From Prochlorococcus sp. AG-402-M18 (GTDB lineage Bacteria > Cyanobacteriota > Cyanobacteriia > PCC-6307 > Cyanobiaceae): a DNA stretch of 64,000 nucleotides. Position numbers and translations under genes: made by a program. The stretch spans positions 62,001-126,000 of the forward strand of contig QCIQ01000003.1 in assembly GCA_003216595.1 (NCBI GenBank), written 5' to 3'. The notes beneath the pieces are model-generated. The model was not told the DNA's origin. It ran no database searches and saw nothing but the letters and a program-made list of their open reading frames with translations. Below, in pieces: positions 35,368 through 40,417 of this stretch (its first letter is position 1; each line of letters opens with the position of its first letter).

Positions 35368-36567
35368 TCAGAACTTGAAAGTGGTTTTAATTAAAGCTCC
35401 ATTAATGTCATCCTTACCATCTTGTTCAATAACAAAAATAGCTGGAGTAACTGTGACGCTATCGTTCACCGTGAAATCATAAAAAGCTTCCCAAGCCAAA
35501 GGATCATCATAGCCACTGTCATCTCTATGAGTTTCGGCTGTTCCAATACCAAACCCAAACTTATTCCCCTCAATAAAAGCATCATGCCATAGGAAGCCAA
35601 CAGACCATGTATTGCCATCCTCCACCTTATTCATTGCAGTATCAGGACTATCATCGTTTTCAGGATTCTTCCAACCAATACCAGCACTCAGGCTATAGTC
35701 GTCTCCAAATTGATAACTACCACTAATTCCATAAGAAGAGTAATCATTCACATCAGGAGAATCATCAGTTTTCCCATTATCTGCCTGTGTATATGCAGCT
35801 GCAAGAGTAAATTTCTCATCAACCCATGCCAACTGAGTTGTTATGTGATCTTTACCGTCATCAGTTAAGAAGCCAATCGAAGAGTTTGATGCGTCTTCTG
35901 AAACGAAGAGTGCAGAAGCAACTAATTTGTCATGGGACCAAGTAATACCAGCACCAGCTCCCATTCTTTTGGAATAAGTATCATTGGCTCCTGCCTGGTT
36001 TAGTACAAACAAGACCCCATCGCCTGGGTAAGCACTTGGCCACGCACCAAGCAAATCATCTTGACGAAGCTTGGGGCCAAAAGTTACTTGAATATCGTCT
36101 CCAACAGGGAATTGGTAATAAGCCTTGTGAAGTTCTAACGAATCACTACTACTAAAAGCAGTATCTAATCTTGCCTCACCCATCATCCCGAAGGGCTCCA
36201 TCATCCCAAAATTACCTATGCGAACAGCAGTCTTAAGCATGTCTTGGCCAGTAAAACTGGTCATAAACATGAGCTTTGTATCGTAATGAAAAACTGTCCC
36301 ATCCTTGTCACCAGAAGAAGACATTCCACCCATTCCACCCATTCCACCCATTCCAGAATCGCTTACGCCATCTACTCCACCCAAAACAAAAGTTGTTTTA
36401 CCCATAAACATAGTCGAAGGGTATGAATCCCCCATCTTCATGTGACTATCATGGTGATCATGATGACCTTTATGATCGCCACCTCCTGCTTCAACAGCCA
36501 TTGGAGCCATTAAGCCTAAGGCAGCAGGAATCAAGATTAATCGCGAAAAGAGCTTCATAGATCTCAC
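35368..36567 (-). CDS. porin-like outer-membrane beta-barrel with His/Met/Gly-rich N-terminus (likely start ATG 36558)
   Basis: Signal MKLFSRLILIPAALGLMAPMAVEA; HKGHHDHHDSHMKMGD; GMGGMGGMGGM; C-terminus ends in aromatic FKF; alternating strand pattern. Confidence 0.75.
   Translation of the reverse strand: MRSMKLFSRLILIPAALGLMAPMAVEAGGGDHKGHHDHHDSHMKMGDSYPSTMFMGKTTFVLGGVDGVSDSGMGGMGGMGGMSSSGDKDGTVFHYDTKLMFMTSFTGQDMLKTAVRIGNFGMMEPFGMMGEARLDTAFSSSDSLELHKAYYQFPVGDDIQVTFGPKLRQDDLLGAWPSAYPGDGVLFVLNQAGANDTYSKRMGAGAGITWSHDKLVASALFVSEDASNSSIGFLTDDGKDHITTQLAWVDEKFTLAAAYTQADNGKTDDSPDVNDYSSYGISGSYQFGDDYSLSAGIGWKNPENDDSPDTAMNKVEDGNTWSVGFLWHDAFIEGNKFGFGIGTAETHRDDSGYDDPLAWEAFYDFTVNDSVTVTPAIFVIEQDGKDDINGALIKTTFKF
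36322..36357. repeat. 9-bp tandem repeat (cattccacc) encoding MGG units in porin
   Basis: cattccacc x3 plus a partial fourth copy cattccaga. Confidence 0.85.
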
Positions 36568-36757
36568 AAATACTAGTCAAACTAGTAAAACTATATATAG
36601 ATGCGAATATAACCTCAAACACTTGTGAAAGCGATAACAGATGTGCCTTTCACTACAAAAATAGTGTGCGTTTTGATACAAATATTCAAGGTCTTTTACT
36701 GACAACGTTCACTATTTAATTAACCTAAAACTAGACGAACTAGATAAACCTAGAAAG

Positions 36758-36997
36758 ATGAACAATCTCAAGCCTATTTTCACCGCCATCATTATTTCTA
36801 TGTCGTTTTCACTGATGGGATGCTCAGGTAATTCCCAAACAAACGGAACTCCTGCACTTTTTGAAACGAAAGCAGAAGCTGAAAAAGCAGCAAAAAATTT
36901 CAATTGCACTGGAGCGCATAAGATGGGAGATAAATGGATGCCTTGCAAAAGTCATACAGATCATGAATCTCATGATGGGCATCACCATCATCACTAA
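36758..36997 (+). CDS. small lipoprotein with DUF3721-like motif and His-rich tail
   Basis: Lipobox-like SLMGCSG; FETKAEAEKAAKNFNCTGAHKMGDKWMPCKSH; tail HTDHESHDGHHHHH. Confidence 0.78.
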   Translation: MNNLKPIFTAIIISMSFSLMGCSGNSQTNGTPALFETKAEAEKAAKNFNCTGAHKMGDKWMPCKSHTDHESHDGHHHHH

Positions 36998-37009: not shown

Positions 37010-37453
37010 ATGACAAATTCAAATAGTAACGATCAGAACAATTCCGAAAGTCCTTCTCATTGCGGAAGTAAACCAAAAAAAATTGCATTTGGGATAGCAC
37101 CACTCGGATTTATATCCATTGGAATTGTTCCCATGGGAATTGTTACCATTGGGATTGTTCCCATGGGTGTCGTTTCTATAGGCGTAGTAGCTATGGGAGT
37201 CGTTAATGCCTCAATAGTAGGAATGGGAATATTTTCTGCAGGAATAACAACTATGGGTCTAAAGGTGTGGAGTCCGGAAAATAATGCTATTCACGAGTCA
37301 ATCAATCGTTCACATTCTCCTTCTTCAAAAAATATATATGCATATCCAACTAAAGCTCAGGCAGAGATCGAAGCCAAAAAGATCGGATGCAATGGTGTCC
37401 ATAAGATGGGTGCATTATGGATGCCTTGTGCAATCCATATCAACCCTAACTAA
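37010..37453 (+). CDS. pentapeptide-period (GIVPM-type) repeat membrane protein with C-terminal DUF3721-like motif
   Basis: GIAPLGFISIGIVPMGIVTIGIVPMGVVSIGVVAMGVVNASIVGMGIFSAGITTMG; then YPTKAQAEIEAKKIGCNGVHKMGALWMPC. Confidence 0.75.
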   Translation: MTNSNSNDQNNSESPSHCGSKPKKIAFGIAPLGFISIGIVPMGIVTIGIVPMGVVSIGVVAMGVVNASIVGMGIFSAGITTMGLKVWSPENNAIHESINRSHSPSSKNIYAYPTKAQAEIEAKKIGCNGVHKMGALWMPCAIHINPN

Positions 37454-37587: not shown

Positions 37588-38205
37588 CTAAGAATATATA
37601 TCTTCAACTAACATTGAACCCTTTTCGCAAATTTGCTCCTGTGAAGGGAACTCTTTATCGGAGCAACAACATTCTCCTTTATCTGAATTGTTGATCCAAT
37701 TAATAATCCCTGTTCGGATTGGTTGAGAACATACTTGTCCTTCTTTAAGGTGATTGATTTCTTCGCTTGTTAAAGGATCAGCATGTTCAATAAAAAGAGA
37801 CTCTTTAAGCCTAAAAGAACATGTCTCATTCCATTGCTCAAAACAATTTATATGGTTTATAAAATCATTCCATGCTTCTTTCATTGATCTATATCCCTTC
37901 CTTTTTAACTCTTTGCTGAAAACAGCTTTAATGAATTCATTAAAATTCTGCAATTCATGAGGTGTAAAAGATTGTTTGACATGGCTTTCATAATCAGGAA
38001 AGTCAAGTTTTTTCTCTATTGATTGCAGTCTTTGTTCAATCATATGAAATCGAGAATCTATCGATTCAACAGGCAGATTCTCTATTTGATTAACAAAACA
38101 ATCAGAGACATAACTAACCAATGATTTCCCCGAAATCCTCGCACTCTCTTTAATCTTTTCTAAAAGTTTTGAATCAATACTTACATTGAGTTGCGTTCTC
38201 TTCAT
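37588..38205 (-). CDS. ribbon-helix-helix-type DNA-binding protein with Cys-rich C-terminus
   Basis: MKRTQLNVSIDSKLLEKIKESARISGKSLVSYVSDCF (RHH pattern); coiled region; tail GECCCSDKEFPSQEQIC. Confidence 0.6.
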   Translation of the reverse strand: MKRTQLNVSIDSKLLEKIKESARISGKSLVSYVSDCFVNQIENLPVESIDSRFHMIEQRLQSIEKKLDFPDYESHVKQSFTPHELQNFNEFIKAVFSKELKRKGYRSMKEAWNDFINHINCFEQWNETCSFRLKESLFIEHADPLTSEEINHLKEGQVCSQPIRTGIINWINNSDKGECCCSDKEFPSQEQICEKGSMLVEDIYS

Positions 38206-38365: not shown

Positions 38366-39151
38366 CTATCTATTGTTTGGTAGCAAAATCAATGAAATCA
38401 CACAAAGAACACTAATCAAAGGTCCAGGAGGCAAATTCAAAATCATGGCAAGAGAAAAACCTATAAGAGATAAAATCAATCCAAATATGGAGGATCTAAC
38501 CATCGCAATCCATAAAGATCTTGCTTTCTGTAATCCCAACAAAGTTGGGGTTGAAAGTAACGCAATCACAAGAATGACTCCCACTGCAGACATTGAACTC
38601 ACGATGACAAGTGCCGTAGTAAAACCAAGAGCCAAATTTAAAAAAGATACATTAACTCCACTTGAAGCAGCTCCTTCTGGGTCTAAACCAATATGAACAA
38701 GCTTGTCGTAACCAAAAAGCATCAAGCAAATAAATACCGAGAAAGCGATCAAAGTCCTTAGCAGATCACTCAAATTTGCAGTTAATAAATCTCCAAATAA
38801 AACAGCCTCCAAATCAATCCTGATACCCAGTAGAGGTATAAGCAAAACACCGAGTCCCATCGAACCAGCAAGAATTGTATTCATAACAGCTTCATAATTT
38901 TGATTTTTTTTATTTGTCAAACTTTCTGCTGCAATAGCTCCTACCAAGCCACTGACGACTCCACCAATAGAAGGGTCCAAACCAAGCGCCATAGCCAAAG
39001 CAAGACCTGGCAGCACACAATGCGAAATTAAATTAACTTGAAGAAGCCTTTTATGAGTGATCAATACAGTTCCCATGGCAGGGCAAAGTATTCCTGAAAA
39101 GGAAGTTATCAAAAGAGGAATTATCCACCAATTTGTATTAAAAAAAGACAT
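38366..39151 (-). CDS. znuB: zinc ABC transporter permease
   Basis: ABC-3 family permease: GTVLITHKRLLQVNLISHCVLPGLALAMALG; adjacent to zur/znuC. Confidence 0.88.
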   Translation of the reverse strand: MSFFNTNWWIIPLLITSFSGILCPAMGTVLITHKRLLQVNLISHCVLPGLALAMALGLDPSIGGVVSGLVGAIAAESLTNKKNQNYEAVMNTILAGSMGLGVLLIPLLGIRIDLEAVLFGDLLTANLSDLLRTLIAFSVFICLMLFGYDKLVHIGLDPEGAASSGVNVSFLNLALGFTTALVIVSSMSAVGVILVIALLSTPTLLGLQKARSLWIAMVRSSIFGLILSLIGFSLAMILNLPPGPLISVLCVISLILLPNNR

Positions 39152-39168: not shown

Positions 39169-39609
39169 ATGGTCAGTAAGAGAGATCAACTTAAGATCTT
39201 GTTAATGAGTAAAAGCAAGCCTGAAATCACTAAACGTCAACAGCAACTGCTCAATGAGCTTAAGAAATGTACTGATGAATTGAGTGGGCAAGAACTGCAT
39301 AGACAACTTCATAATGGTGAAAAGGCAATGGGACTGACCACGGTCTATCGAAACCTGCAAGCACTAGTAAAGCAAGGTTTGATTCGTTCCAGACATCTTC
39401 CCAATGGTGAGGTTCTTTATGCGCCAGTTGAAAGAGATATTCATCATTTAACTTGCGTAAGCTGTGGAGAAACCACACGCTTGAAGGGATGTCCGGTCAA
39501 AATGATGGATCTGTCGAAAAACACTTCTAAAAAATTTGAGCTTTTGTTTCATACTCTTGAGTACTTTGGTCTCTGCCAAAATTGTTCTCAGCAACTTAAT
39601 GCTGGATAA
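39169..39609 (+). CDS. zur: Fur-family regulator, probable zinc uptake regulator (start may be ATG 39205)
   Basis: TTVYRNLQALVKQGLIR, HHLTCVSCGETTRLKGCPV, CQNCSQQ; within znu locus. Confidence 0.85.
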   Translation: MVSKRDQLKILLMSKSKPEITKRQQQLLNELKKCTDELSGQELHRQLHNGEKAMGLTTVYRNLQALVKQGLIRSRHLPNGEVLYAPVERDIHHLTCVSCGETTRLKGCPVKMMDLSKNTSKKFELLFHTLEYFGLCQNCSQQLNAG

Positions 39610-39632: not shown

Positions 39633-40331
39633 CTATAACTTCCACCTCAAATAATTAATTGAACTTAGTTTTTCTTGAACTTCCTGAGGGCTGCCAGAAG
39701 CCAAAATAATTTTATCTAAAGCAACAACCTTGTCATAGGCATTTAAAGATGTTCCCCAGTCATGACTACTAACAAAAACCGTGAATCCCGAATCGGCTAG
39801 CTGACGAATGATTAAGAGGAAATCTTCTTTAGCGGGAGGATCAAAAGCGGAGCAAGGTTCATCAAGAAGAAAAATTTTGGCTGGATTCATTAATGTTTTG
39901 GCAAGTAGTGCTCTTTGTTGTTGTCCACCAGACAAAGCATCCAGTCTCCTTTTTGCTAAATGAGATATTCCAACACGTTGAAGGGCAGCTTCTAATTCAC
40001 AACAAGTCGATTTGGAATGATTTACTCGACCTAAAGAGACTAATCCTTCAACAGTAATTGGAAAATTCCAATTCAGCTTTCCCCTCTGAGGCATTAAAGC
40101 CACTTGAGATCGATTATTTCTCAATGGTTTTCCGTCAACAGTAATTTCTCCTTGATCCGGAGTGCTACTCCCTTGCAGCAAGCTTAATAATGTAGACTTA
40201 CCAGCGCCATTCGGACCAACAAGAGCAGTCAAAGTACCTTGCTCAAGCTTTAGAGAAACCTTGCTTAAAGCAGGTTTGATATTACTCGAATAGGAATATG
40301 TCACATTTTCAGCAATCAAACTAGACATCAA
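39633..40331 (-). CDS. znuC: zinc ABC transporter ATP-binding protein
   Basis: ALVGPNGAGKSTLLSLLQG, LSGGQQQRALLAKTLM, IFLLDEPCSAFD. Confidence 0.9.
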   Translation of the reverse strand: MMSSLIAENVTYSYSSNIKPALSKVSLKLEQGTLTALVGPNGAGKSTLLSLLQGSSTPDQGEITVDGKPLRNNRSQVALMPQRGKLNWNFPITVEGLVSLGRVNHSKSTCCELEAALQRVGISHLAKRRLDALSGGQQQRALLAKTLMNPAKIFLLDEPCSAFDPPAKEDFLLIIRQLADSGFTVFVSSHDWGTSLNAYDKVVALDKIILASGSPQEVQEKLSSINYLRWKL

Positions 40332-40378: not shown

Positions 40379-40393
40379 TGAAAATGATTATCG
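40379..40393. promoter_or_regulatory. putative Zur box between znuC and znuA
   Basis: TGAAAATGATTATCG closely matches cyanobacterial Zur consensus TGATAATNATTATCA (two mismatches), in the divergent znuC/znuA intergenic region. Confidence 0.65.
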
Positions 40394-40417
40394 TTTTAGA
40401 TACGCTTAATATTTTTG

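What the first reader, a model, noticed from the sequence alone, without database searches (positions are those of the whole stretch)
37010..37453. GIVPM-type pentapeptide-period repeat protein fused to a DUF3721-like Cys motif
Seen directly: about eleven tandem 5-residue units (GIAPL GFISI GIVPM GIVTI GIVPM GVVSI GVVAM GVVNA SIVGM GIFSA GITTM), Gly at position 1 and Met/Ile/Leu at position 5. They are followed by YPTKAQAEIEAKKIGCNGVHKMGALWMPC. The five-residue period recalls, but does not match, the A(D/N)LXX pentapeptide family. It could form a hydrophobic solenoid or a Met-lined membrane structure. The same C-terminal Cys...HKMGxxWMPC motif lies next door on a His-tailed lipoprotein, suggesting a two-component metal-binding pair.
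Basis: partly seen in the sequence, partly recalled or inferred. Interest (0 to 1): 0.72.

Follow-up and report, generated by a model that had tools for sequence, protein, structure and literature searches.

The report
Met-ladder repeat protein beside zinc genes
Nearly all sequenced small marine and freshwater cyanobacteria of this family carry a small protein in which a methionine recurs every ten residues of an oily glycine-rich repeat, fused to a Cys/His motif and often near metal-handling genes, so it is probably an uncharacterised metal-binding (copper or zinc) protein rather than a curiosity of one genome.

Summary
The 147-residue ORF at 37010-37453 carries a Gly-paced repeat (residues 28-83; Pfam GLTT, 63 bits) followed by DUF3721 (63 bits), and starts 12 bp after a His-tailed DUF3721 lipoprotein gene. 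The repeat unit is better read as ten residues. In 72 homologues the Met at position 5 of decads 2-6 (M42, M52, M62, M72, M82) is about 99% invariant. In relatives lacking DUF3721 that slot holds only Met, His or Cys (83 of 83 cells), while the slot five residues away varies freely. The fusion occurs in 225 of 251 genomes of its family; DUF3721 was found in no other cyanobacterial family. Context points to metal handling: here znuABC, a Zur orthologue and a His/Met-rich porin. DUF3721-less relatives in other families mostly end in His-rich tails, and 5 of 19 sit near copper genes. I also found a probable local regulator: the neighbouring ribbon-helix-helix-like gene co-occurs with CTAG-N5-CTAG sites before the porin and lipoprotein. 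I favour envelope-associated soft-metal (Cu(I) or Zn) binding. Metal identity, fold and localisation are unproven; two single-sequence structure predictions disagree.

The parts
37010..37453 (+). fusion protein, 147 aa: HCGSKPK motif, GLTT-type repeat, linker, DUF3721
   Evidence: homologues in 225/251 family genomes
37058..37072 (+). residues 17-21 HCGSK, Cys18 just before the repeat, conserved in the fusion proteins listed
37091..37258 (+). repeat, residues 28-83, five and a half ten-residue units; Met ladder M42, M52, M62, M72, M82
   Evidence: PF01744 63.3 bits; ladder conservation and shuffles; GRAVY 1.77 with one DEKRHNQ residue
37343..37438 (+). DUF3721 domain, residues 112-143; C127, G129, H131, W137, M138, P139, C140 invariant in 107 aligned domains
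   Evidence: helix plus beta-hairpin at pLDDT about 75
36758..36997 (+). 79-aa lipobox protein (LMGC) with DUF3721 and a His-rich C-terminal tail, same operon by spacing (12 bp)
35368..36567 (-). divergent porin (por_somb-like, 96.3 bits, just under the NCBIfam cut-off of 100) with a His/Met-rich N-terminus
36573..36585 (.). CTAGTCAAACTAG, putative operator before the porin gene
36731..36743 (.). CTAGACGAACTAG, putative operator before the lipoprotein-fusion operon
37588..38205 (-). 205-aa ribbon-helix-helix-like protein with conserved C-terminal Cys (C..PIRTG..GxCxC..IC); putative regulator
   Evidence: (RHH_1 below cut-off)
38366..39151 (-). znuB (permease), assigned from sequence character and position in the cluster
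   Evidence: gene cluster as in PMC9337993
39169..39609 (+). Fur-family protein carrying the SynZur sensory residues (D, H, C95- and H115-equivalents) and the CxxC pairs: Zur
   Evidence: FUR 63.6 bits; residue pattern
39633..40331 (-). znuC (ATPase), assigned from sequence character and position
40379..40398 (.). TGAAAATGATTATCGTTTTA, Zur-box-like site between znuC and znuA
   Evidence: position as in PMC9337993
40415..41944 (+). znuA with His/Asp-rich loop, assigned from sequence character and position

Best explanation
The pair is an envelope-associated metal-binding unit for a soft or borderline metal, most likely Cu(I), with Zn(II) the main alternative. Inferred mechanism: the exported DUF3721 lipoprotein catches metal in the periplasm with its Cys/His/Met hairpin and His tail. 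The fusion protein, held in or on the membrane by its hydrophobic repeat, carries a second DUF3721 domain and a column of Met residues ten residues apart that binds, buffers or passes on the metal. In this genus the two genes and the divergent porin are probably controlled by the neighbouring ribbon-helix-helix-like protein through CTAG-N5-CTAG operators. Shown here by computation: the architecture, the invariant Met/His/Cys ladder, the invariant DUF3721 Cys/His, the gene contexts, and the operator-regulator co-occurrence. Inferred: metal binding, the metal's identity, location and direction of transfer.
For: Ladder: in 72 fusion proteins, position 5 of decads 2-6 is Met in 70 of 71 counted cells each, while position 10 varies among I/V/L/F/A/W; in 18 relatives without DUF3721 (7 of them paralogues inside the family) the ladder cells hold only M (74), H (4) or C (5) (alignment). 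A plain hydrophobic filler would be expected to vary with L/I/V/F. DUF3721: C127, H131, W137, M138, P139, C140 invariant in 107 domains. Relatives in other cyanobacterial families lack DUF3721 but mostly end in His-rich tails. Context: znuABC and Zur beside the pair in this genus; Zur and/or znu within 6.5 kb in 7 of 40 sampled loci from five genera. In 5 of 19 loci around DUF3721-less relatives there are copper genes within three genes: CopC+CopD and DUF1775 with a c-type cytochrome, BlaI-like regulator plus protease (PetR/PetP type) twice, DUF411 plus multicopper oxidase, an efflux-type protein judged by eye; PF03965 lies within 0.5 kb of the repeat gene in G407 and G454. PMC7896320 describes PetR/PetP as the copper switch of cyanobacteria, with two regulon members of unknown function. 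PMC8374608 states that the Prochlorococcus strains tested lack metallothionein and that it is not known how Prochlorococcus deals with excess zinc.
Against: No direct metal-binding or expression data for any member. The metal is contradictory by context: zinc genes in some genera, a Fur-type gene in marine Synechococcus loci (10 of 40, convergent), copper genes only around DUF3721-less relatives. Most sampled loci have no recognised metal gene next door. The neighbours of the DUF3721-less relatives were inspected by eye before the count was made. Both structure predictions are single-sequence and disagree. WH8102's measured Zur regulon (PMC9337993) has eight genes among which I could not identify this pair, so zinc control is not established.
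Confidence: 0.5

Rival explanations
1. Zinc rather than copper: the pair is a zinc scavenging or buffering accessory to ZnuABC, and the repeat is mainly a membrane anchor.
For: znuABC and Zur adjacent here and in several genera; His-rich tail and Cys/His motif suit zinc; Zur-box-like site at 40379-40398.
Against: I found no Zur-box-like site before the pair; it shares CTAG-N5-CTAG with the porin instead; a Met ladder is unusual for zinc; some DUF3721-less relatives sit with copper genes.
Confidence: 0.3
2. Structural membrane protein: the Gly-paced hydrophobic repeat is a glycine-zipper transmembrane element, Met is conserved for packing, and only DUF3721 (perhaps a disulfide-stabilised hairpin) has a function, possibly unrelated to metal.
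For: GRAVY 1.77 and one polar DEKRHNQ residue in 56; the isolated repeat folded as a hairpin plus a 33-residue helix, block pLDDT 77-93 in most of the helix.
Against: A period of ten does not keep Met on one face of an alpha helix; ladder replacements in DUF3721-less relatives are only His and Cys, never Leu or Ile; the full-length prediction gave no helix there.
Confidence: 0.2
3. Iron or redox role: a protective or sensing protein of the Fur network.
For: A Fur-type gene lies convergent to the fusion in 10 of 40 loci, all marine-Synechococcus-like.
Against: Convergent orientation gives no evidence of co-regulation; Met/Cys/His ladders suit soft metals; no iron genes recognised near the DUF3721-less relatives inspected.
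Confidence: 0.1

Closest known systems
Pfam PF01744 GLTT repeat
   Same: five-residue period with a Gly per unit; profile score 63.3 bits, three times the cut-off
   Different: here the units alternate so that the true period is ten, with Met/His/Cys in every second unit; no paper in the held library mentions the GLTT repeat
Pfam PF12518 DUF3721
   Same: full-length domain match, invariant C-x-G-x-H...WMPC
   Different: fused to a long hydrophobic repeat, whereas the other DUF3721 proteins seen here are mostly small exported proteins; no paper in the held library mentions DUF3721
Pentapeptide-repeat proteins (A(D/N)LXX, quadrilateral beta-helix)
   Same: period of five residues
   Different: no Pfam match up to E=1; Gly-led, almost no polar residues, Met ladder
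Met-motif copper proteins (CusF, CTR1, CopC type) and bacterial metallothionein (from general knowledge)
   Same: Met, His, Cys ligands in an envelope or storage setting
   Different: no sequence relation found; PDB sequence searches gave nothing credible
SynZur of Synechococcus WH8102 (PMC9337993)
   Same: the Fur-family gene at 39169 has the same sensory and structural residues and sits within znuABC
   Different: it is a neighbour of the finding, not part of the fusion

Membership tests
PF01744 GLTT repeat | profile score over the gathering cut-off | tested here: met
   63.3 bits versus 21
PF01744 GLTT repeat | five-residue XGLTT consensus in every unit | tested here: not met
   Gly every five residues but G[IV]VPM / G[IV]VSI alternation, true period ten; so it is called a relative by profile only
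PF12518 DUF3721 | full-length profile match over cut-off | tested here: met
   62.8 bits versus 27, positions 1-32 of 33
PF12518 DUF3721 | conserved C-x-G-x-H and WMPC | tested here: met
Pentapeptide repeats (A(D/N)LXX) | profile match | tested here: not met
   no hit up to E=1
Pentapeptide repeats (A(D/N)LXX) | right-handed quadrilateral beta-helix | tested here: inconclusive
   single-sequence models of low confidence that disagree
Metal-binding proteins | binds a d-block metal | not testable with these tools
   needs purified protein
Ribbon-helix-helix regulators (neighbour at 37588) | profile match over cut-off | tested here: not met
   RHH_1 12.5 bits versus 20.5; DUF6364 19.7 versus 27.3; called RHH-like from the N-terminal QLNxxIxPxLLxxxK pattern only
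Cyanobacterial Zur (neighbour at 39169) | SynZur sensory D/H/C/H and two CxxC pairs at the published spacing | tested here: met
   residue pattern and spacing

The most novel reading that the evidence does not exclude
The repeat forms a continuous column of Met (or His, Cys) side chains that holds a row of Cu(I) ions in or on the membrane: a metal-storing or metal-conducting repeat architecture not described before, used by picocyanobacteria, some of which lack metallothionein.
Probability: 0.18. Interest if true: 0.8.

Novelty: new variant of a known kind. Interest (0 to 1): 0.55.

Why it matters
The family includes Prochlorococcus and marine Synechococcus, whose copper and zinc sensitivity is ecologically important, and published work says it is not known how Prochlorococcus handles excess zinc (PMC8374608). 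A near-universal, uncharacterised protein with an invariant Met ladder and a Cys/His domain is a concrete, testable candidate, and the CTAG-N5-CTAG operator offers a handle on a regulon not described in the papers I found.

Tried and rejected
Fold search was left out since the models are too weak. PDB sequence searches with the protein and with the 25-row profile gave only non-credible hits (photosystem PsbY E=0.56; gp41 E about 1). Phages: none; plasmids: one weak Nostoc hit. The operator motif alone is not enriched genome-wide (21 exact CTAGN5CTAG sites versus 47 for the reversed control); the case rests on position and on co-occurrence with the regulator. Considered and dropped: a chance low-complexity ORF (rejected); amyloid or ice-binding role (no supporting context).

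Full report
What is there. The ORF at 37010-37453 (+) is real and exactly as quoted. It has an N-terminal polar stretch ending in HCGSKPK, a 56-residue hydrophobic Gly-paced repeat (residues 28-83), a linker and a DUF3721 domain (residues 112-143). Pfam puts both over the curated cut-offs. The gene starts 12 bp after the stop of a 79-residue protein with a lipobox (LMGC), a DUF3721 domain and a His-rich tail.

The repeat. Across 72 fusion proteins, Met at the fifth place of decads 2 to 6 is nearly invariant; the one exception appears to be L008, which has a five-residue in-frame deletion in the repeat. In 18 relatives without DUF3721 the same cells hold Met, His or Cys only. The tenth place, also hydrophobic, varies freely. 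That contrast is the strongest argument that the ladder is a ligand column rather than packing.

Distribution. The fusion is found in 225 of 251 genomes of its family. In a sample of 294 cyanobacterial genomes, DUF3721 appears in 35, all of this family. The repeat without DUF3721 occurs in about 30 genomes of other families; most of those examined end in a His-rich tail such as HHxHH, and in several of them the first ladder positions are His (GISPHGLISIGAIPHG). Family members with a repeat-only paralogue beside the fusion also exist (G010, G065, G026).

Context in the family. Own-genus loci show the order porin (divergent), lipoprotein, fusion, RHH-like gene, znuB, Zur, znuC, znuA, a small ORF and a CobW-type gene (znu and CobW names are from sequence character and cluster layout, not from a profile search). 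The Fur-family gene at 39169 has the D/H/C/H sensory residues and CxxC pairs reported for SynZur, and a Zur-box-like palindrome lies between znuC and znuA. In WH8102 Zur represses synw0968-0973, the znu cluster with unknown neighbours (PMC9337993). Zur or znu genes lie within 6.5 kb of the fusion in 7 of 40 sampled loci spread over five genera; a different Fur gene lies convergent to it in 10 others. A DUF3721 gene lies just upstream in 27 of 40 loci by a strict motif, and in 20 of 35 genomes by the Pfam positions.

Context outside the family. Around 19 repeat-only relatives, five loci have copper genes within three genes: CopC/CopD, DUF1775 and a c-type cytochrome (L112); BlaI-like regulator plus protease (L119, L128, the latter also with an HMA-domain protein); DUF411 plus multicopper oxidase (L127); an efflux-type protein (L114, judged by eye only). 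PetR/PetP, a BlaI-like factor and BlaR1-like protease, is the copper switch of cyanobacteria and controls two proteins of unknown function (PMC7896320). In the 294-genome sample the PF03965 gene lies within 0.5 kb of the repeat gene in two genomes, and none of the 20 genomes of this family listed has a PF03965 match. The copper count was made after looking, so it is suggestive, not a test planned beforehand.

A putative regulator. In the whole genome the exact motif ACTAG-N4-ACTAG occurs only at two places, both in the porin-lipoprotein intergenic region, one before each gene. The relaxed CTAG-N5-CTAG is present upstream of the pair in exactly the 4 of 40 loci that also hold the RHH-like gene, and in none of the other 36 (Fisher p = 1e-5; related loci are not independent). 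Twelve of sixteen own-genus loci keep both sites and the rest keep one. In genomes where the RHH-like gene stands elsewhere, the motif lies about 90-120 bp upstream of that gene in 5 of 7 loci (L163, L164, L165, L166, L168), against a background of 7 sites in 611 kb. The protein's C-terminal half keeps several Cys in most members, which could be a metal or redox sensor. Its ribbon-helix-helix assignment is by pattern; Pfam scores are below cut-off.

Structure. Single-sequence AlphaFold gave pLDDT 50 overall, with DUF3721 as a helix plus beta-hairpin at about 75. In that hairpin C127 and C140 would lie near each other and H131 near M138; this is inference from the strand pairing. The isolated repeat gave a hairpin and a long helix. 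The two do not agree, and a ten-residue period does not line Met up on an alpha-helical face, so I leave the fold open.

Conclusion. The finding is a conserved, uncharacterised family, not an oddity. I rate a soft-metal-binding role at about even odds or slightly better, copper ahead of zinc by chemistry and by the relatives, zinc ahead by the local neighbourhood. Both domains already exist as Pfam families without described function in the held library, so this is a new variant of a known kind; the ladder model, if true, would be new.

Noticed in passing
36573-36585 and 36731-36743; L163-L166, L168: CTAG-N5-CTAG sites tied to a ribbon-helix-helix-like gene family with conserved C-terminal Cys; a putative undescribed regulon.
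   Followed up: partly
35368-36567: Porin with His/Met-rich N-terminus (GGGDHKGHHDHHDSHMKMG, MGGMGGMGGM), where other porins of the family start with an SDVVPGDWAY-type segment (L086, L167).
   Followed up: partly
G000:C5:188-769: A second, 35% identical paralogue of the RHH-like protein elsewhere in the same genome.
   Followed up: no
L048, L049, L051: A second DUF3721 subfamily (HKNQDKWMPC, no Met after HK) in exported proteins; many genomes hold several DUF3721 genes.
   Followed up: no
L084, L085, L086: Repeat-only paralogue (about 84 aa, Cys in place of the fifth-decad ladder Met) directly downstream of the fusion in some genomes.
   Followed up: partly
L008: One own-genus homologue has a five-residue in-frame deletion in the repeat, which shifts the ladder.
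   Followed up: no
L120, L131: GLTT profile hits that look like unrelated simple repeats (NPCAG, PVPGL); the Pfam profile also gathers other low-complexity proteins.
   Followed up: no
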